Shown here piece by piece: positions 22,546 through 31,352 of a DNA stretch of 64,000 nt. The DNA is from Nautiliaceae bacterium (GTDB lineage Bacteria > Campylobacterota > Campylobacteria > Campylobacterales > Nautiliaceae): assembly GCA_027038555.1 (NCBI GenBank), contig JALVVX010000017.1, forward strand, positions 27,834-91,833, given 5' to 3'. The notes below the pieces were generated by a model that was not told the DNA's origin, did not search any database, and saw nothing but the letters and a program-made list of their open reading frames with translations. Numbering within the stretch: position 1 is the first letter of the stretch; every line of letters begins with the position of its first letter. The position numbers were made by a program, and so were the translations under genes.

Positions 22546-23252
22546 AAAACATAACCTTAAGAATATTTTATATAATATCAACATTTCCTCTGCTTCTTAT
22601 AAGTAAAATATTAATATATTTTAATTTATTTAATTTAAAAACAGATTTTAATAAATGTATAAAAGTAATTCAATCTAAATTTAAAGAAATTCCAGACACT
22701 TACATAAAGTATCTTATTATTGCAGAAGATCATAGATATTATTATCATTGTGGTATAGATCAAATAGCAATTTTAAGAGCTCTTTTTAAAAATACAATAT
22801 TCAAATCTTTAGAAGGAGCTAGTACAATAGAACAACAATTTGTCAGAACTGTTACCAATAATTACAAAATCTCTTTATGGAGAAAAATAAAAGAGCAAAT
22901 TTTAGCAATTGCAATTAGTTCTAAAAAAGATAAAAATAATATTGCAAAAGCATATTTAGCAATTGCTTACTATGGATATAATTATATTGGCGCTAATGGT
23001 ATACAACAAATCTTAAACAAAGAAAATTTATATTTAGTAACAGAAAATGAAATCATTTCAATTATTGCAAGATTAAAGTATCCACAACCCAAAAAATTCT
23101 CAATACAATGGCAAAAAAGACATATTAATAGAAAAAAATATATATATTATAGGTTTAAAAAATTAAAAAAAACACTAAAACTTTTTCAAATCCACAACTC
23201 TCCCAAAAACCAAAATTGCAGGCTTCTCAGCCTTTTTAGCATGTTGCACTAA
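22542..23252 (+). CDS. Stand-alone GT51 peptidoglycan glycosyltransferase-like protein
   Basis: About 236 residues: an N-terminal membrane helix (about 8-28) and then a GT51 domain. Motif 1 is IAEDHRYYYHCGID, with catalytic E62; motif 2 is GASTIEQQFVRTVT; motif 3 is RKIKEQILA. There is no transpeptidase domain, as in MtgA. It should polymerise lipid II. The start is probably the TTG at 22542 overlapping the upstream TGA; the TTG at 22524 is an alternative. The last 26 codons run antisense into the siroheme synthase gene, which suggests a lost native stop. Confidence 0.75.
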   Translation: MKNITLRIFYIISTFPLLLISKILIYFNLFNLKTDFNKCIKVIQSKFKEIPDTYIKYLIIAEDHRYYYHCGIDQIAILRALFKNTIFKSLEGASTIEQQFVRTVTNNYKISLWRKIKEQILAIAISSKKDKNNIAKAYLAIAYYGYNYIGANGIQQILNKENLYLVTENEIISIIARLKYPQPKKFSIQWQKRHINRKKYIYYRFKKLKKTLKLFQIHNSPKNQNCRLLSLFSMLH

Positions 23253-24380
23253 ATTTTTAATATCAGTTTTTATTATTTTTTGATTTTTACGAGTAATATT
23301 TGAAATAATTGCTACTGGATAATTTTCATCAATTCCTATCTCAAGTGCTTTTTTAGCAATATGCCCTGCTCTGCTTAACCCCATCAAAACTACAACTGTA
23401 TGATTTTCTTTTTTTAGCTCCTCAATCCAATCAAGATTTACCCTATTTCCTCTTAAATGAGCCGAATGGACACTAAAAGATTTACTAACTCCTCTTGAAG
23501 TAATAGGTAAATTAAGATGACTAATCGCCGTAGCCGAGCTAATCCCTGGAATTAACTCCACATTAAAGCCTTCTTTTGTAATAGCTTCAAGTTCTTCATA
23601 GCCTCTACCAAAAATAAAAGGGTCGCCTGATTTTAGTCTTCCTACAACTTTACCTTTTTTTAAATAGTCTAAAATAATCTCATTTATCTCTTCTTGTTTT
23701 TTAGAGTGTTTGCCTTTTTCTTTTCCTACATAAACTTTTTCACACTCTACAAGCTCTAAAATCTCTTCACTTATTAAGTGGTCATACAAAATCACATCAC
23801 ATTTTTTAATTGTCTTTAAAGCCTTAATAGTCAAAAGCTCAGCATCTCCCGGACCTGCTCCTATTAAAAAAAGTTTTGATTTTAGTTTTGTTAAATTTTT
23901 ATCAATTATGCCTTTTTGCCTTAATTCTTTTTTTTCTTTTAAAACCTCTTCAATATTCTCTGGCAAAATCTTTTTAATTTCATCTCTAATAAACTGAGCC
24001 ACACTTGGAGAAGCCCCATTACTTGAAACTCCTATTTTTAAATCGCCTCTATTTATCAAAGCCATAAAATAAAAATCACAAAATTTTGGCTTATCAACTA
24101 CATTTAATAAAAAATTTTTAGTTTTTTTAAGTTCAAGGAGTTTTTTAGTTATTTCCTCATTTCCAGTTGCATCAATTACAATACTCTCTTTTAAATCATT
24201 CTCTTCAAACTCTTTAACGATAATATCATCACAAAACTCGCTAATATTTGCTAAAATCTCTTTTGCTACTACTCTAAATTCAATTTTATTCTCTTTTAAA
24301 ACTTTTGCTTTTTGAAGTGCTACTTTTCCACCACCAATTAGTAAAACTTTTTGATTTTTAATTAAAATTGGCAAACTCAT
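23175..24380 (-). CDS. cysG: Siroheme synthase (precorrin-2 dehydrogenase/ferrochelatase + uroporphyrinogen methyltransferase)
   Basis: 401 residues. The N-terminal half has the NAD-binding loop LLIGGGKVALQKA (about 13-25) and the SSNGASPSVAQ active loop (about 119-129) of the dehydrogenase/chelatase. The C-terminal half (about 170-401) is a SUMT domain with LIGAGPGDAELLT, GDPFIFGRG and an EL-PGISSA region. It makes siroheme, the cofactor of the nitrite reductase encoded two genes upstream. The start overlaps the nitrate reductase stop by four bases. Confidence 0.93.
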   Translation of the reverse strand: MSLPILIKNQKVLLIGGGKVALQKAKVLKENKIEFRVVAKEILANISEFCDDIIVKEFEENDLKESIVIDATGNEEITKKLLELKKTKNFLLNVVDKPKFCDFYFMALINRGDLKIGVSSNGASPSVAQFIRDEIKKILPENIEEVLKEKKELRQKGIIDKNLTKLKSKLFLIGAGPGDAELLTIKALKTIKKCDVILYDHLISEEILELVECEKVYVGKEKGKHSKKQEEINEIILDYLKKGKVVGRLKSGDPFIFGRGYEELEAITKEGFNVELIPGISSATAISHLNLPITSRGVSKSFSVHSAHLRGNRVNLDWIEELKKENHTVVVLMGLSRAGHIAKKALEIGIDENYPVAIISNITRKNQKIIKTDIKNLVQHAKKAEKPAILVFGRVVDLKKF

Positions 24381-26317
24381 TTTACTACCTTTACTGCTGT
24401 GTGATTATAATCTGGCTCTTTGCTTATTGGGTCTATTTTTGGATTTGTTAGAAAATTTACTCTCCTTTCACTTATTGGGATAAAGACTGAGCCTTTTTTT
24501 ATATTAGTAATTTTTACTTTTGTTTTTAACTCTCCATATCTTGAAATAATTTTAACCTCATCTCCTTGTTGTATTCCTAAATTTTTAGCATCAACTTCAT
24601 TTATTTCTACAAAACTTAAAGGCTTATATTTTTTAAGACTCTTTACAAAAGCTGTCTTACTTCCGCTATGCCACTGGTCGCGAGTTCTACCGGTTAGCAG
24701 AATAAAAGAATACTCTTTATTTGGCATTTCATGAAGATTTTTATTTTCTACAAAATAGACTTTTGCTCTTTTATTCTCAGTTAAAAAGCCATCTTTAAGT
24801 GCATATTCTCCCCAAACAAAAGGCTTGGTTTCAAGCTCTTTATAATCAGCCTTATAGATATCAATATCTGGACTAAGTCTTGTCATTTCTTTATATTCAT
24901 TAAAAACTTCTTCACTGGAAGAAAAATCAAACCCCCTAAATCCAAGGGCTTTTCCTAAATCGGCAAAAATCTCCCAATCCTGTTTTGCTCTTTTTTCTCT
25001 AAACTTAATAGCCCTTGTTAAAGTCCTATCCATATTTGTTTGAGTCCCGTCTTTTTCACCAAAAGGAGCGGCAGGCAACCTTATATGAGCAAATTTAGAA
25101 GTTTCACTTCCATTATATGCATTTATCTCAACTACTAAATCAATTTTACTAAAAGCCTCTTCTACAAATGTTCTATTTGGAAGATGATAAATTGGGTCTG
25201 TATGGCAAACTATTAAAACATCAACTTTATCTATCATCTCAAAAGCGGTAAGTCCAGGACCATTACACACTTCATCTACTTCCCAAAATTTAGCAACTTT
25301 AATTTTATTTTCTTCATTATAATCTAAATGAACGGCTAAGGTTGTAGCAAGCCCTCCAACCTCCCTGCCTCCCATTGCATTTGGTTGACCTGTTAGGCTA
25401 AACGGACCTGAACCTTTTTTTCTAATTTGTCCTGTAATTAAGTGCAAATTCATAATTGCTAAATTTTTATCAACTCCTTGGACTGATTGATTTATCCCCA
25501 TCGTCCAAGCTGTTATAAATTTTTTAGCATCTTTTAACATTTCCATAAATTTTTCAAAATCTTTTTTACTTATTCCACTTCTTTTTAGCAACTCATTTTC
25601 ATCAAGTTTTAAAAGATTTTCTCTTAACTCATCAAACCCGTCAACCCAGGTTTTAATAAACTCTTTATCAATTAAATCTTCTTTTATAAGTCTAATAGCA
25701 ACTAAATTTAAAAAATCTATATCACTTCCTGGCGTTATAGGTAAATATAAATCAGCAATTTTTGCCGTGTCTGTAAATCTTGGGTCAATTACAATAACTT
25801 TCATTCCATTTTTTTTAGCTTTTTTAATTTTATTAAACAAAACTACATGGCTTTCAGCCGGATTTGCCCCTATTAAGATAAGCAAATCCGTATGATTTAT
25901 ATCTTCCATTCTAACCGGCACATAATCACTGCCTATTGCTTTTTTATACCCAACAACTGCACTTGCCATACAAGTCCTTGAATTTGTATCAATATTTGGT
26001 GTTTTAATAAAACCTTTTGCAAGCTTATTTGCCACATAATAATCCTCATTTAACATCTGACCTGAGAGATAAAAGCCTATTCTTTCAGGCTTTGTATTTC
26101 TAATTTTTTTAGCAATTAAGTTTATAGCATCTTCATAATTTCCAATTTTTCCGTTTATATAAGTATTTAAAAGTCTATTTTTATCAATACTTTCAAGCTG
26201 ACTAATTCCCTTAGAACAACTCATTCCCTCATTAACCGGGTAACTTTTATCGCCTTTTAGCCTCTCCCCTACTTCAAAACTACACCCAACTCCACAATAT
26301 GCACAAACTGTCCTCAT
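24377..26317 (-). CDS. narB: Assimilatory nitrate reductase, molybdopterin catalytic subunit
   Basis: 646 residues of the DMSO-reductase superfamily. A [4Fe-4S] cluster motif is formed by C5, C8, C12 and C34 (CAYCGVGC...MSCSKG). C116 in NSRTCMASAV is the probable molybdenum ligand. The C-terminal dinucleotide-binding domain has LTGRTRDQWHSGSKT. No Tat signal is present, so it is cytoplasmic. The neighbouring siroheme synthase, nitrite reductase and nitrate transporter genes point to nitrate assimilation (NarB/NasA type) rather than to formate dehydrogenase, the closest alternative family. AAGGAA precedes the ATG. Confidence 0.9.
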   Translation of the reverse strand: MRTVCAYCGVGCSFEVGERLKGDKSYPVNEGMSCSKGISQLESIDKNRLLNTYINGKIGNYEDAINLIAKKIRNTKPERIGFYLSGQMLNEDYYVANKLAKGFIKTPNIDTNSRTCMASAVVGYKKAIGSDYVPVRMEDINHTDLLILIGANPAESHVVLFNKIKKAKKNGMKVIVIDPRFTDTAKIADLYLPITPGSDIDFLNLVAIRLIKEDLIDKEFIKTWVDGFDELRENLLKLDENELLKRSGISKKDFEKFMEMLKDAKKFITAWTMGINQSVQGVDKNLAIMNLHLITGQIRKKGSGPFSLTGQPNAMGGREVGGLATTLAVHLDYNEENKIKVAKFWEVDEVCNGPGLTAFEMIDKVDVLIVCHTDPIYHLPNRTFVEEAFSKIDLVVEINAYNGSETSKFAHIRLPAAPFGEKDGTQTNMDRTLTRAIKFREKRAKQDWEIFADLGKALGFRGFDFSSSEEVFNEYKEMTRLSPDIDIYKADYKELETKPFVWGEYALKDGFLTENKRAKVYFVENKNLHEMPNKEYSFILLTGRTRDQWHSGSKTAFVKSLKKYKPLSFVEINEVDAKNLGIQQGDEVKIISRYGELKTKVKITNIKKGSVFIPISERRVNFLTNPKIDPISKEPDYNHTAVKVVK

Positions 26318-26342
26318 TTATTTCCTTTTTATTAAAATAAAA

Positions 26343-26491
26343 AAACACTGACTAAATAAAACGAAACAATTGCAAATTTTAGTAAAGTAAAAGCGTTAAA
26401 AAAATGCTCCAACCCTGCAAGGGCAGCATTTTTATCTTTTACGAAAGCTCAAAAAATTTGCACTCTTGCCCAGTGCTTTTAGTCAGTGTTT
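26343..26491 (-). ncRNA. Multi-stem structured element between nirA and the nitrate reductase gene
   Basis: Read on the transcribed minus strand, this 149-base segment is closed by a perfect 14-bp stem (AAACACTGACTAAA, 26343-26356, with 26478-26491). Inside it are a hairpin GCACT/AGTGC (26460-26464 with 26472-26476), a 10-bp stem TGCAAATTTT (26371-26380 with 26453-26462), GTAAAAG (26387-26393 with 26436-26442), a 9-bp stem (26400-26408 with 26425-26433) and an apical CCCT/AGGG. The hairpin and the 10-bp stem share three bases and compete. The closing stem begins at the nirA stop codon and is followed by a U-rich run before the nitrate reductase ribosome site. A riboswitch, attenuator, processing element or MITE-like insertion are all possible. 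The pairing is seen; the function is unknown. Confidence 0.65.
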
Positions 26492-28334
26492 AATCAATAC
26501 TTATTAAATCAACTATTTCAGAAAATACAATCGCTTTTTCTTCTAAAACCAAATCTATCATTTGAGATAAATTTTCATCTACATCTTTATTTAATTTTTT
26601 AATTCTTTTATACCCCTTGACTTCCCCAAAAGGTCTAATCCCAGTTAATTTAAAATATAATTTTTCAGCCAATGATTTAATTTCAATTTCTTCAAGTTTT
26701 GGAGTTCTAAACTCTTCAAAACTCAAATCAATTTCAATATTTTTCTCTTTCAAATAAGTTTTAAGTTTTAAAAAAAATCCTATAAACTCTTTTGTAAAAT
26801 TATTTAAAACCTTATTATGAAACTCCTCAAAACTATTTGACTTATCTTTTTTAAATTCAATCATAAGCTCTTTAATATAAAGTTTAGCAAGCACCAGCGG
26901 GACATTTCTTAAAATTGTATATCCTTCCCTCTCCATTCCTCCACCAATATATATATGTACTCCACTAACATTCTTACCACCAAACTTTGCCTTACACCCT
27001 TCAAAGCCAATATTGGCAATTCCGTGCGTTCCGCATCCCTTAGGACAGGCAGACCAGTGCATTACCACTCTTTTATTTAAAGACACCTCTTTTTCAAGGT
27101 ATTCAGCCATCTCTATTGCATCGTGTTTATTTTCTATCACTCCAAAAGGACAAAACTTAGTCCCGGCACAAGCAACTAAATGAGTTTTATAAGGACTGTC
27201 TATGTTTTTATATTTTTCAAAAAATTTCTCTTTAAGCAGTTTATCAACCTTTTCAACATCTAAAATAAAAAGGCTTTGTTCAACTGTCAGTCTAATTCTA
27301 CCTTCTCCATATTCTTCTGATAATCTTGCAGCTTCAATCAAGTCACTCCCACTAAAAAGCCCGCTTGGGACATTTGCATAAACGACAAAATTTCCGTTTT
27401 TTTGAAGCACTTTTCCCATCTCTTTTTCATAAAATCCAAGATTTGTAAGAGTTTGCCCAGCCCTTGCAAAATCAATACCGGCAATTTCTCTAATGGCTTT
27501 ACTTATCTCATTCATCCCCACAGCTTCTATTAAAAATTGAAGTCTATTTTTATTTCTATTGTCTCTAAATCCAAATTCTCTAAAAAGCTTTGCCGTTGCT
27601 TCAAAACAGGCAACCACCTCATCAGGCTTTACAAAAATATCAGCAGGCTTTGCAATATTCCCTACTCTTCCGCCAAGATAAACATTAAAACCATAAACTC
27701 CATCTTTCATAGCCAAAACAAAAGCTAAATCATGAGTGAAGATATTGCTTCTATTTGCAAAACTTCCATTTAGTGCAGTATTAAATTTTCTTGGCACTTT
27801 ATCAATCCATTCAGGATTTTTTAAAAATATCTTTTGCATCTCTAAAAGCAGATTTTGAGAAGACAAAATATTATCCATTGCAACACCATCAAGAGGGTCA
27901 TTTACAATTCCTCGGATATTATCAACCCCTGTTTGAAACGATGTGATTCCAACACTATTTAGTCTTTCTAAAATTTCAGGAATATCCTCAATTCTTATAT
28001 ATCTAAGCTCAATTTGAGCCCTTGTAGTCAAATCCATATAATCTCTTCCAAACTTTTTAGAAATTTCTCCAATAACTCTGGCTTGTCTTGAATTTAACTG
28101 ACCTCCCGGTATCCTTAGCTTTATCATAAAAAGTCCTGGAGTTTTAGGTCTGTCATAAATTCCAAAACACTTTAAAAAGTATTTTTTATCCTCTTCTGGT
28201 ATCGAATCATATCCGTTTTCTGCATACTCTTTAATTTTTTCAATAGCTTCAAGAGCATTTCTTTCTTGTTTCATTTTTTCTGTTTTATTAAGTTTTTTAT
28301 TTTTTTTTTCATATGCCTGTTTTAATTTTTCCAT
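26490..28334 (-). CDS. nirA: Ferredoxin-type nitrite reductase (siroheme, 4Fe-4S)
   Basis: 614 residues with the two-fold repeated nitrite/sulfite reductase architecture. The siroheme/[4Fe-4S] ligands are C389 and C395 (CAGTKFC) and C430 and C434 (CPKGC). The repeat segment GGQLNSRQARVIGEISKKFG and NDPLDGVA also fit the family. It should reduce nitrite to ammonium with electrons from ferredoxin. Sulfite reductase is the main alternative, but the nitrate reductase and nitrate transporter neighbours favour NirA. The gene is divergent from the transporter, and its stop lies within the base of a large inverted repeat. Confidence 0.88.
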   Translation of the reverse strand: MEKLKQAYEKKNKKLNKTEKMKQERNALEAIEKIKEYAENGYDSIPEEDKKYFLKCFGIYDRPKTPGLFMIKLRIPGGQLNSRQARVIGEISKKFGRDYMDLTTRAQIELRYIRIEDIPEILERLNSVGITSFQTGVDNIRGIVNDPLDGVAMDNILSSQNLLLEMQKIFLKNPEWIDKVPRKFNTALNGSFANRSNIFTHDLAFVLAMKDGVYGFNVYLGGRVGNIAKPADIFVKPDEVVACFEATAKLFREFGFRDNRNKNRLQFLIEAVGMNEISKAIREIAGIDFARAGQTLTNLGFYEKEMGKVLQKNGNFVVYANVPSGLFSGSDLIEAARLSEEYGEGRIRLTVEQSLFILDVEKVDKLLKEKFFEKYKNIDSPYKTHLVACAGTKFCPFGVIENKHDAIEMAEYLEKEVSLNKRVVMHWSACPKGCGTHGIANIGFEGCKAKFGGKNVSGVHIYIGGGMEREGYTILRNVPLVLAKLYIKELMIEFKKDKSNSFEEFHNKVLNNFTKEFIGFFLKLKTYLKEKNIEIDLSFEEFRTPKLEEIEIKSLAEKLYFKLTGIRPFGEVKGYKRIKKLNKDVDENLSQMIDLVLEEKAIVFSEIVDLISID

Positions 28335-28479: not shown

Positions 28480-29760
28480 ATGGTAGATTTTAAAGCCTTA
28501 AAAGGAAAAGGACATTTTCCAACACTGCTTATGGCGTTTTTGTATTTTGATATCAGTTTTATGGTGTGGACTATGCTTGGACCTCTCGGTCCGGAAATTA
28601 GAGATTCATTAGCAGCTCATGGAATAATTATCAATCAAAACCAGCTTGCAACGCTTTTATCCCTTCCTATTTTAGTAGGTGCACTTTTAAGAATAGTTCT
28701 AGGATTTATCGTAGATAAAATTGGACCTAAAAAAACAGCACTTATTGCACAGTCAATTGTAATAACTGCTCTTTTTTATACATACTTTAAAGGTGAAAAT
28801 ATAACTTATAATGAATTACTACTAGTTGCATTTGCACTTGGTTTTGCCGGGGCTTCTTTTGCAGTAGCGCTTCCTCAGGCAGGGCAATGGTATCCTCCAA
28901 AACTTCAAGGTGTGGTACTTGGAATTGCAGGTGCCGGAAATATCGGGGTAGTGCTTGATTTTATTTTTGCTCCTAAAATCGCCGAACTTTGGGGATGGCC
29001 GGCAGTTTTTGGAATTGGCGGAGTTTTAAACTTAATAGTTTTTATCCTTTATATAATTTTGGCAAAAGATGCACCAAGAGAAATTTACACTCCAAGACCT
29101 AAAAAAATAAAAGATTATGTAAAATTACTTAAAGATAAAGATACTTGGTGGTTTAGCCTTTTTTATGCAATAAGTTTCGGAGGATTTGTAGGATTTGCCT
29201 CTTATATGAAGGTATACCTGATGGATACATATGAAAATGATTTAATGATACTTGGAAAAAACTTCTTACACGAATCAAACGTAAAAGTTGTTGCCGGATA
29301 TATCGGGGCGGTTTTAATTTTTGCAGGAGCGGTACTTAGAGCTGTAGGAGGAGGAATCGCAGATAAAATAGGAGGTGTTAAAGCCCTTTATCTTTTTTAT
29401 ACATCTGCCGGAATTTTTACACTTGTACTTGCTTTTGGTGAGCTTCCGTTTTATTTTGCACTTGTTGCAATTGCTTTTATAATGGCAAGTCTCGGTATGG
29501 CAAACGGTGCAGTGTTTCAGCTTGTACCACAAAGATTTGGCAAAGATATGGGGATTATGACAGGAATTGTCGGAGCGGCTGGAGGACTTGGAGGAACCTC
29601 TCTTATTAAAACACTTGGTTGGAGTAAAGCCACATTTGGAAGTTATTCAGCCGGGTTTATGATATTCGCCGGTGTTATAATTATTGCTATAACAGGTCTT
29701 AACAGTGTAAAAACGAGATGGAGAACCACTTGGGGAGCAGTTGCAGGAGGGAGGATTTGA
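28480..29760 (+). CDS. narK: MFS nitrate/nitrite transporter (NarK/NasA type)
   Basis: 426 residues with 12 membrane helices. NNP-family features include the glycine-rich signature AGAGNIGVVLDFIFAP and GIVGAAGGLGGTSL, and arginines in helices 2 and 8 (ALLRIVLGF, AVLRAVGGGIADKIGG) that bind nitrate in this family. It imports nitrate for the divergently encoded reductases. AAGGAG precedes the ATG. The end overlaps the phosphatase/kinase gene by four bases. Confidence 0.92.
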   Translation: MVDFKALKGKGHFPTLLMAFLYFDISFMVWTMLGPLGPEIRDSLAAHGIIINQNQLATLLSLPILVGALLRIVLGFIVDKIGPKKTALIAQSIVITALFYTYFKGENITYNELLLVAFALGFAGASFAVALPQAGQWYPPKLQGVVLGIAGAGNIGVVLDFIFAPKIAELWGWPAVFGIGGVLNLIVFILYIILAKDAPREIYTPRPKKIKDYVKLLKDKDTWWFSLFYAISFGGFVGFASYMKVYLMDTYENDLMILGKNFLHESNVKVVAGYIGAVLIFAGAVLRAVGGGIADKIGGVKALYLFYTSAGIFTLVLAFGELPFYFALVAIAFIMASLGMANGAVFQLVPQRFGKDMGIMTGIVGAAGGLGGTSLIKTLGWSKATFGSYSAGFMIFAGVIIIAITGLNSVKTRWRTTWGAVAGGRI

Positions 29761-31352
29761 TTACTTCTTTTTCTCTTGCTAAAGACAAAGATTTAACTGG
29801 TGAGGACTATTTGGAAGTTAAAAAATTAGATGATTTAATTGTTGCTGTTTTGTGCGATGGAGTCGGAAGTGCCGAAGGAGGCAAAGAAGCGGCAAAAAGA
29901 ACTACAAAATATTTAATAAACAATTTCAAAAACAGAATAAAATCATGGGATATGGAAAAAAGCATAAAAACATTCATAACTTCAATAAATAAAATACTCT
30001 ATAACGAAAGTTTAGCCCTTTACGAAAGAGAAGAGCTTTTAACAACTTTAGCTCTTGTTGTAATCGATAACGACAGACTTTACGGGGCAAATATAGGTGA
30101 CAGCAGAATTTATCTAAAAAGAAATAATGATTTAATTCTTTTATCAAAAGACCACAGCGAAGATAATATACTTCTTGAAGCTATTGGAATTAAAAAAGAA
30201 GTAAATATTCATTACTTTGAAAATAATCTTCAAAAAGATGATGCAATTTTATTATGTTCTGATGGACTTTATAATGTTTTAAATGAAGATGAAATAAAAA
30301 GGCTAATGGATTTAGGAGCTTACAATTTAGTAAAAGCCGCTTCAAAAAAAGTTGATGACAATCTGCCGGATGATACAAGCGCTATTGTTATAAAACTAAA
30401 AGACATTAATCCAATAAATAAACTCAAAAAATTAGAACTTGAAATTCCGGAAAATCTAAAAAAAGACCAGATTATTGACGGATATAAACTTATAAAGCCT
30501 CTTATTCAAAATAATCGTACCTGGCTGGTTGAGAAGAAAAATCAAAAGTATGTTATGAAATTTCCACTAATGGAAGCAAAATATGATGAAACTTTGCTTG
30601 ATCAATACATAAAAGAGGCATGGAATGCAGTAAGACTTAAAGCCGGATTTTTCCCAAAAGCTGTAATTCCTAAAAAAAGGTCTTTAAGATATTACATCCA
30701 AGAATACATTGATGGAGTAAATTTAAAAGAATATAAAAAACCGCTCCATATTGATGATGCAATAAACCTGGCAAAAACTTTGCTTAATGCTTCGCAGTAT
30801 CTATTAAAATTTGATTTAGTTCATGGAGATATAAAACCCGAAAATATAATAGTAACAAAAAGAAAAGATAAATTAATATTTAAAATAATTGATTTTGGAA
30901 ATATAACTGAAATCTATTCTATAAATACAAAAGCCGGAACTCCAAGTTATCTTGCACCTGAGAGATTTAACGACTCTTTAATCAATGAAAGTACAGAAAT
31001 TTTTTCTATTGGAGTTACTTTATACGAAGCCCTAAGCGGAAAACTTCCATATGGAGAGATTGAGCCTTTTTCAACTCCCACATTTAAAACACTAAAAGCT
31101 CCAAATAAAATCAATCCCAAAATTCCTGATTGGCTAAACAGCATTATAATGTGTTCTATTGAAACAGACCCGGATAAAAGATACAAACACTATTCTGAAA
31201 TGCTGTTTGATCTTAATAATCCACAAAAAGTAAAACCATATTTTGACAAAACAAAACCGTTAATTGAAAGAGACCCGGCAAAAGCCTATAAAATTGCTTT
31301 TTTTATTTCACTTTTTTTAAATTTTCTGTTTTTATACTTTTTACTTAAATAA
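29757..31352 (+). CDS. PP2C-type phosphatase fused to a Ser/Thr protein kinase, C-terminal membrane anchor
   Basis: 531 residues. The N-terminal PP2C domain (about 1-220) has CDGVGSAEGGKEAAKR, GDSRIYL and CSDGLYN metal-site motifs. The kinase domain (about 240-490) has HGDIKPENI (catalytic loop) and DFGN (DFG motif), while the glycine-rich loop is poorly formed. A final hydrophobic helix (about 508-530) should anchor it to the inner membrane. I chose TTG at 29757, with GGAGGGAGGA just upstream, overlapping the transporter stop. Similar fusions accompany nitrate assimilation genes in other proteobacteria, so it may adjust nitrate uptake or reduction. Confidence 0.88.
   Translation: MITSFSLAKDKDLTGEDYLEVKKLDDLIVAVLCDGVGSAEGGKEAAKRTTKYLINNFKNRIKSWDMEKSIKTFITSINKILYNESLALYEREELLTTLALVVIDNDRLYGANIGDSRIYLKRNNDLILLSKDHSEDNILLEAIGIKKEVNIHYFENNLQKDDAILLCSDGLYNVLNEDEIKRLMDLGAYNLVKAASKKVDDNLPDDTSAIVIKLKDINPINKLKKLELEIPENLKKDQIIDGYKLIKPLIQNNRTWLVEKKNQKYVMKFPLMEAKYDETLLDQYIKEAWNAVRLKAGFFPKAVIPKKRSLRYYIQEYIDGVNLKEYKKPLHIDDAINLAKTLLNASQYLLKFDLVHGDIKPENIIVTKRKDKLIFKIIDFGNITEIYSINTKAGTPSYLAPERFNDSLINESTEIFSIGVTLYEALSGKLPYGEIEPFSTPTFKTLKAPNKINPKIPDWLNSIIMCSIETDPDKRYKHYSEMLFDLNNPQKVKPYFDKTKPLIERDPAKAYKIAFFISLFLNFLFLYFLLK

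What the first reader, a model, noticed from the sequence alone, without database searches (positions are those of the whole stretch)
26343..26491. Undescribed multi-stem RNA element between nitrite and nitrate reductase genes
A 149-base segment is closed by a perfect 14-bp stem that begins at the nirA stop codon and ends before a U-rich run and the nitrate reductase ribosome site. Four further stems nest inside it, and two of them share three bases, so they compete. A GCAAG in one hairpin loop could also pair with CTTGC in the apical arm. This much exact pairing is very unlikely by chance in AT-rich DNA. It could be a riboswitch or attenuator (for example for Moco, ammonium or nitrite), a processing element that sets the nirA to nitrate reductase ratio, or a MITE-like insertion with 14-bp terminal repeats.
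Basis: partly seen in the sequence, partly recalled or inferred. Interest (0 to 1): 0.8.

Follow-up and report, generated by a model that had tools for sequence, protein, structure and literature searches.

The report
IS1-type MITE between nitrite/nitrate-reductase genes
The folded element between the two nitrogen-reduction genes is an old copy of a small jumping DNA element, probably moved by an IS1-type transposase and found at many unrelated places in vent bacteria, not a dedicated nitrate-sensing RNA switch; its terminator-like core may still dampen transcription between the two genes.

Summary
The folded segment is real: 14-bp closing stem, nested stems, and folding energy far below shuffles on both strands. 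It is not a riboswitch. It is one copy of a dispersed, roughly 150-bp miniature inverted-repeat element (MITE). Related copies lie in unrelated intergenic sites in this genome, across Nautiliaceae, and in a few other families of the order. 82 distinct copies or pieces were collected. Ends are GGYACTGAC...GTCAGTRCC with an 8-bp target duplication: 11 perfect of 52 copies, against 0.3 expected. Empty sites occur in same-genus genomes. IS1-family insertion sequences in relatives carry the same terminal repeat, and six in one Nautiliaceae genome have perfect 8-bp duplications. The window genome has no detectable IS1 transposase. At the nir site the insertion is old: three congeners share it and the duplication has decayed. 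Pairing covaries strongly across the family, and the core resembles a bidirectional terminator. A polar or processing effect on the nirA-to-nitrate-reductase operon is plausible but untested. Verdict: a new, undescribed family of a known kind.

The parts
26344..26490 (-). MITE copy, 147 bp, family consensus orientation = minus strand (AACACTGACTAAAAGC...TTTAGTCAGTGTT)
   Evidence: Own-genome and relatives searches; CM hit G000:C17:54178-54323, E 2e-20
26478..26491 (-). Left terminal inverted repeat (AAACACTGACTAAA); intact copies begin GGCACTGACTAAAT
   Evidence: Perfect inverted repeat; alignment of ends
26343..26356 (-). Right terminal inverted repeat (TTTAGTCAGTGTTT); intact copies end ATTTAGTCAGTGCC
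26371..26380 (-). 3' arm of the subterminal 10-bp stem (AAAATTTGCA), partner 26453-26462; conserved across the family
26453..26462 (-). 5' arm of the subterminal 10-bp stem (TGCAAATTTT)
26460..26476 (-). Competing left hairpin GCACTGGGCAAGAGTGC; in relatives RCACTC-AACAA-GAGTGY
   Evidence: 38 of 68 copies fold a mini-hairpin here below -1 kcal/mol
26398..26433 (-). Apical A5-hairpin-T7 module (AAAAATGCTGCCCTTGCAGGGTTGGAGCATTTTTTT), bidirectional-terminator-like; followed by conserved AACG
   Evidence: sequence; the apical hairpin changes between subfamilies while the A/T tracts stay
26491..26498 (-). Position of the upstream 8-bp target duplication, decayed (ATTGATTA)
   Evidence: 3 of 8 match the other flank
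26336..26343 (-). Position of the downstream 8-bp target duplication, decayed (TTTTTATT)
26490..28334 (-). nirA-like ferredoxin-nitrite reductase; its stop codon abuts the element
   Evidence: below the curated cut-off of the best model
24377..26317 (-). Molybdopterin oxidoreductase, assimilatory nitrate reductase-like, downstream of the element
   Evidence: formate dehydrogenase alpha and NasC/NasA models score best, all below curated cut-offs; nitrate reductase inferred from the neighbours
23175..24380 (-). Siroheme synthase CysG-like, overlapping the nitrate reductase gene; probably same operon

Best explanation
The segment is a non-autonomous IS1-type element (MITE). Shown: it belongs to a family of about 150-bp palindromic elements with ends GGYACTGACTAAAT...ATTTAGTCAGTRCC, which insert with an 8-bp duplication of AT-rich, mostly intergenic targets; IS1-type insertion sequences with the same terminal repeat exist in the same family and order. 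Inferred: an IS1-type transposase acted in trans on the terminal repeats. At this locus the insertion most likely predates the split of at least three congeners and is now a fixed relic with a decayed target duplication. Its internal core is an A-tract/hairpin/T-tract inside a long, covarying stem. Inferred and untested: the core acts as a bidirectional intrinsic terminator or RNA-processing hairpin; at this site it may lower read-through from nirA into nitrate reductase and cysG, or stabilise the nirA mRNA 3' end. The stated confidence is for the MITE identity and IS1-type mobilisation; for the terminator function it is about 0.4.
For: Dispersed copies in the own genome at unrelated intergenic sites and in most Nautiliaceae. 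82 distinct copies or pieces. 8-bp target duplication: 11 perfect of 52 against 0.32 expected; mean match 4.7 of 8 against 3.07 +/- 0.20 shuffled; match rate drops sharply outside the 8-bp frame. Empty orthologous site with one AAATTAAA in G000 and on another G004 contig, near-identical empty sites in G001 and G007, against a filled site with two copies in G004:C17. IS1-type parents: the 715-bp element of G032 has the same repeat and two ORFs, both matching NF033558 IS1 transposase in the expected order, with an A8C slippage-like run between them. G008 has six near-identical 684-bp IS1 copies with ends GGCACTGACCTAAAA and perfect 8-bp duplications, plus an IS1 relic with the exact GGCACTGACTAAAT end. 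No IS6 transposase in the Nautiliaceae searched and no IS1595 one in the 13 searched. No orientation bias: 21 copies co-directional with both neighbours, 18 opposite, 18 convergent, 12 divergent. The nir site is also occupied in G001 and G004.
Against: No IS1 transposase was found in the window's own genome, though that genome is about 97% complete in 51 contigs. The nir copy has no intact duplication, and no empty nirA-nitrate reductase junction was found: the G008 homologue of the reductase lies in another gene context, and few relatives have it. NF033558 and PF03400 scores of the G032 proteins are below curated cut-offs. MITEs and IS share only the terminal repeat, so descent from a particular IS is not shown. 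Some subfamilies (G012, G008) keep the core but have a different closing stem without the IS1 repeat, which a pure transposition model does not explain. Terminator function rests on resemblance only; the simple terminator scan did not flag the A/T-tract hairpin.
Confidence: 0.88

Rival explanations
1. A dedicated cis-regulatory RNA (riboswitch or attenuator for Moco, nitrite or ammonium) of the nirA-nitrate reductase operon.
For: Stable multi-stem fold; inter-gene position kept in three congeners; competing hairpins.
Against: About 80 relatives, mostly at unrelated genes and in either orientation; target duplications and empty sites; no Rfam match; in the own genome copies adjoin, among others, an EamA-type transporter, lactate-utilisation-like and aroG-like genes (names by eye).
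Confidence: 0.02
2. An old MITE copy that has been co-opted at this site as an inter-cistronic terminator or processing element setting the nirA to nitrate reductase ratio (compatible with the best explanation).
For: Kept in G000, G001 and G004. Compared with them, the G000 copy has a replaced apical hairpin with the A and T tracts intact, and 2-3 pairs changed on both sides. The hairpin ends in T7 in the direction of transcription.
Against: 8-11 pairs are broken between G000 and the orthologues (on an alignment that misplaces part of the apical hairpin), there are only three species, and retention can be neutral; no expression data.
Confidence: 0.3
3. The family-wide compensatory changes come from palindrome correction (template switching between arms) or recombination between copies, not from selection on a structure.
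For: Long quasi-palindromes are prone to arm-to-arm correction (general knowledge); whole closing stems are replaced at once between subfamilies.
Against: Conserved asymmetric loops and conserved A/T tracts (CTAAAAA...TTTTTTTAACG) persist across subfamilies and in a second and third MITE family; template correction would be expected to erase asymmetric loops.
Confidence: 0.35
4. The core is an independent mobile or functional module that has captured IS1 terminal repeats in some lineages and other ends in others.
For: The apical module recurs in the 203-215-bp family and in the 162-bp G168 family; G012 and G008 subfamilies have other closing stems.
Against: The non-IS1 closing stems could be decayed ends of old copies; no clear target duplications were resolved for G012 or G008 copies.
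Confidence: 0.2

Closest known systems
MITEAba12 (Acinetobacter; PMC6382973)
   Same: Short non-autonomous element with terminal repeats matching a co-resident IS, target duplications, spread across a family, AT-rich targets.
   Different: 113 bp, 9-bp duplication, ends GGCTTTGTTGCA of the ISAba12 group; reported weak secondary structure and no predicted Rho-independent terminator, unlike the strongly folded core here.
SM3A and SMN1 MITEs of Sulfolobus (PMC3718332)
   Same: Small dispersed MITEs, 164 and 320 bp, mobilised in trans by IS transposases.
   Different: Archaeal, mobilised by ISC1058 and ISC1733; sequences were not compared here.
IS1 family insertion sequences
   Same: Terminal repeat starting GG, two-ORF InsA/InsB-like organisation, A8C slippage-like run (G032), 8-bp duplication (G008).
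   Different: The MITE has no ORF and shares only the terminal 11-16 bp with the IS.
Correia and REP/ERIC-type intergenic palindromes
   Same: Dispersed intergenic palindromes able to act as terminators or RNA-processing sites (from general knowledge).
   Different: From general knowledge different in sequence and ends; not compared here.

Membership tests
MITE (non-autonomous DNA transposon) | Short, no coding capacity, terminal inverted repeats | tested here: met
   About 150 bp, 14-bp repeats, no ORF of 60 aa or more
MITE (non-autonomous DNA transposon) | Fixed-length target-site duplication | tested here: met
   8 bp for the family; decayed at the nir copy (3 of 8)
MITE (non-autonomous DNA transposon) | Multiple dispersed copies and empty sites | tested here: met
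   empty sites for one copy; not for the nir copy itself
MITE (non-autonomous DNA transposon) | Autonomous element with matching ends | tested here: met
   In relatives; not in the window's own genome
IS1-family derived | Terminal repeat matches IS1-family elements with the same duplication length | tested here: met
   GGCACTGACTAAAT in G032, G024 and a G008 relic; 8-bp duplications in G008
IS1-family derived | Mobilised by IS1-type transposase | not testable with these tools
   Needs a transposition assay
Riboswitch / known Rfam RNA | Match to a known covariance model | tested here: not met
Riboswitch / known Rfam RNA | Consistent placement upstream of functionally related genes, one strand | tested here: not met
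   Unrelated neighbours, 21 versus 18 orientation counts
Intrinsic transcription terminator (core hairpin) | Stable hairpin followed by a U-tract | tested here: inconclusive
   A5-hairpin-T7, -13.4 kcal/mol for the nir copy, but not flagged by the terminator scan; function untested

The most novel reading that the evidence does not exclude
A mobile, structure-conserved bidirectional terminator module (CTAAAAA-hairpin-TTTTTTNAACG) is carried by at least three MITE families in this order and has been repeatedly placed between genes, so transposition rewires operon read-through, here between nirA and nitrate reductase.
Probability: 0.25. Interest if true: 0.6.

Novelty: new member of a known kind. 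Interest (0 to 1): 0.35.

Why it matters
It stops a false 'nitrate riboswitch' from being recorded and replaces it with a checkable account: an undescribed MITE family of hydrothermal-vent Nautiliaceae linked to IS1-type transposases. The family is strongly folded, with covariation good enough to fool RNA-discovery pipelines, so it is a useful caution that compensatory changes alone do not prove a regulatory RNA. If the conserved core terminates transcription in both directions, it would be a mobile terminator that can retune operons.

Tried and rejected
Rfam at gathering and permissive thresholds: nothing relevant. IS6 and IS1595 as mobilisers, because of GG ends and 8-bp duplications: IS6 absent from the Nautiliaceae genomes searched, IS1595 absent from the 13 searched. 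RNAalifold on the 68-copy alignment gave no structure, so a consensus was built from averaged pair probabilities and then counted against controls. Loop-loop pairing GCAAG/CTTGC: not conserved. Phage or virus origin: the right-end pattern has no match in viral contigs. Literature searches found no description of these repeats in Nautiliales; most subscription papers are not in that library, and ISfinder could not be searched. An empty nirA-nitrate reductase junction was sought through homologues; the G008 homologue lies in another gene context.

Full report
1. Observation. The segment 26343-26491 is as described: a perfect 14-bp closing stem, a 10-bp and a 9-bp nested stem, and a hairpin at 26460-26476 sharing three bases with the 10-bp stem. 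It folds far better than shuffles on both strands. Both neighbours, a nirA-like nitrite reductase (26490-28334) and a nitrate reductase-like molybdopterin enzyme (24377-26317), are on the minus strand and are followed by a siroheme synthase gene. The nirA stop codon abuts the element.

2. It is dispersed. A search of the window's own genome found diverged copies on other contigs, each in a different intergenic place. The covariance model finds six copies in this genome. A consensus query found matches in 21 of 41 genomes: nearly all Nautiliaceae, and two other families of the order. A model-based survey of 200 genomes of the class found 12 with matches, including f18 genomes with up to 9 and one f4 genome with at least 15 copies of a related 162-bp form. 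The named records holding exact right ends are Nautiliaceae or Campylobacterales metagenome bins; viral contigs had none.

3. It is mobile. Aligning the ends of copies showed GGYACTGAC...GTCAGTRCC and an 8-bp duplication. Of 52 copies with both flanks, 11 have perfect 8-bp duplications against 0.32 expected (maximum 3 in 2000 shuffles), and 16 match at 7 or more. The match rate is high only inside the 8-bp frame. For the G004 copy L012, the flanks with the element and one duplication removed were searched: G000 and a second G004 contig hold the uninterrupted site with a single AAATTAAA, and G001 and G007 hold near-identical uninterrupted sites. G004 is a bin with some contamination, so its two contigs may come from two strains.

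4. The likely mobiliser is an IS1-family transposase. Searching for the bare terminal repeat found a 715-bp element in G032 and several in G024 with GGCACTGACTAAAT-type ends. Both ORFs of the G032 element match the NCBIfam IS1 transposase model in the expected order, though below its curated cut-off, and an A8C run resembling the IS1 frameshift site separates them (the comparison with IS1 is from general knowledge). The Nautiliaceae genome G008 holds six near-identical 684-bp IS1 copies with ends GGCACTGACCTAAAA and perfect 8-bp duplications, and an IS1 relic whose end is exactly GGCACTGACTAAAT. The window genome has no detectable IS1 transposase, so its copies are presumably inactive now. The MITE shares only the terminal 11-16 bp with these IS.

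5. The nir copy is old. The same junction carries the element in the same orientation in G001 and G004, whose nitrate reductases are 83-85% identical to this one. The duplication is decayed in all three, and the terminal GG/CC reads AA/TT. The orthologous elements are 76-89% identical; two or three pairs differ on both sides with pairing kept, but 8-11 are broken. Shared position could in principle also arise by repeated insertion, but the shared AA/TT ends and orientation favour one event.

6. Structure. On a MAFFT alignment of 68 copies not fitted to structure, a 57-pair consensus pairs in 84% of cells against 75% for shuffled and at most 54% for slid controls; the covariation score is 0.261 against 0.124 and at most 0.081; 432 cells change on both sides against 171. 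The structure was derived from these same sequences and copies are related, so this overstates significance, but the margin is large. In G012 and G008 subfamilies the closing stem is entirely different in sequence and still largely complementary. Conserved internal features are the tracts CTAAAAA...TTTTTTTAACG flanking a variable apical hairpin. The same module occurs in a second MITE family of 203-215 bp with the same ends and perfect duplications (L139, L140) and, by eye, in the 162-bp G168 family. A-tract, hairpin and T-tract together resemble a bidirectional intrinsic terminator. That is inference; the simple scan did not flag it.

7. Not a strand-specific regulator. In element orientation, 21 copies are co-directional with both neighbours, 18 opposite to both, 18 between convergent and 12 between divergent genes. 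The gene calls behind this count are simple ORF calls, and a few elements with two matched pieces are counted twice.

8. Known versus new. MITEs mobilised in trans by IS transposases are well known, for example MITEAba12 (PMC6382973) and SM3A/SMN1 (PMC3718332). I found no description of this family in the papers searched. I classify it as a new family of a known kind, with an unusually structured core whose function is open.

Noticed in passing
L138-L143 (e.g. L139:574-777, L140:520-734): A second MITE family of 203-215 bp with the same IS1-type ends and perfect 8-bp duplications in L139 and L140; it shares the apical A-tract/hairpin/T-tract module.
   Followed up: partly
L219-L228 (G168, 15 or more copies): A related 162-bp GC-richer palindromic family with ends CTGACCTTACGCAAAATC and the same CTAAAAA...TTTTTTNAACG module; L222 shows TATCCTAA on both sides.
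   Followed up: partly
L147, L152-L156 (G008): Six near-identical 684-bp IS1-family copies with perfect 8-bp duplications, looking recently active.
   Followed up: yes
L158-L161, L018 (G008): The right flank of this subfamily is conserved beyond the element and contains TTTTGTTTTATAAT, which could be an outward -10-like promoter.
   Followed up: no
L171-L185 (G012): Copies sit in intergenic regions with repeated motifs such as TTCACTAATTCACAAACTCACAATTTCAC, a minisatellite-like background.
   Followed up: no
L024 and L047: Longer variants (about 234-245 bp) with internal insertions between intact ends; L047 has a perfect 8-bp duplication, so internal length is flexible.
   Followed up: no
window 29718-31352: A PP2C-type phosphatase fused to a Ser/Thr kinase domain, overlapping the end of a NarK-family nitrate/nitrite transporter gene (28480-29760), near the nitrate genes.
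   Followed up: no
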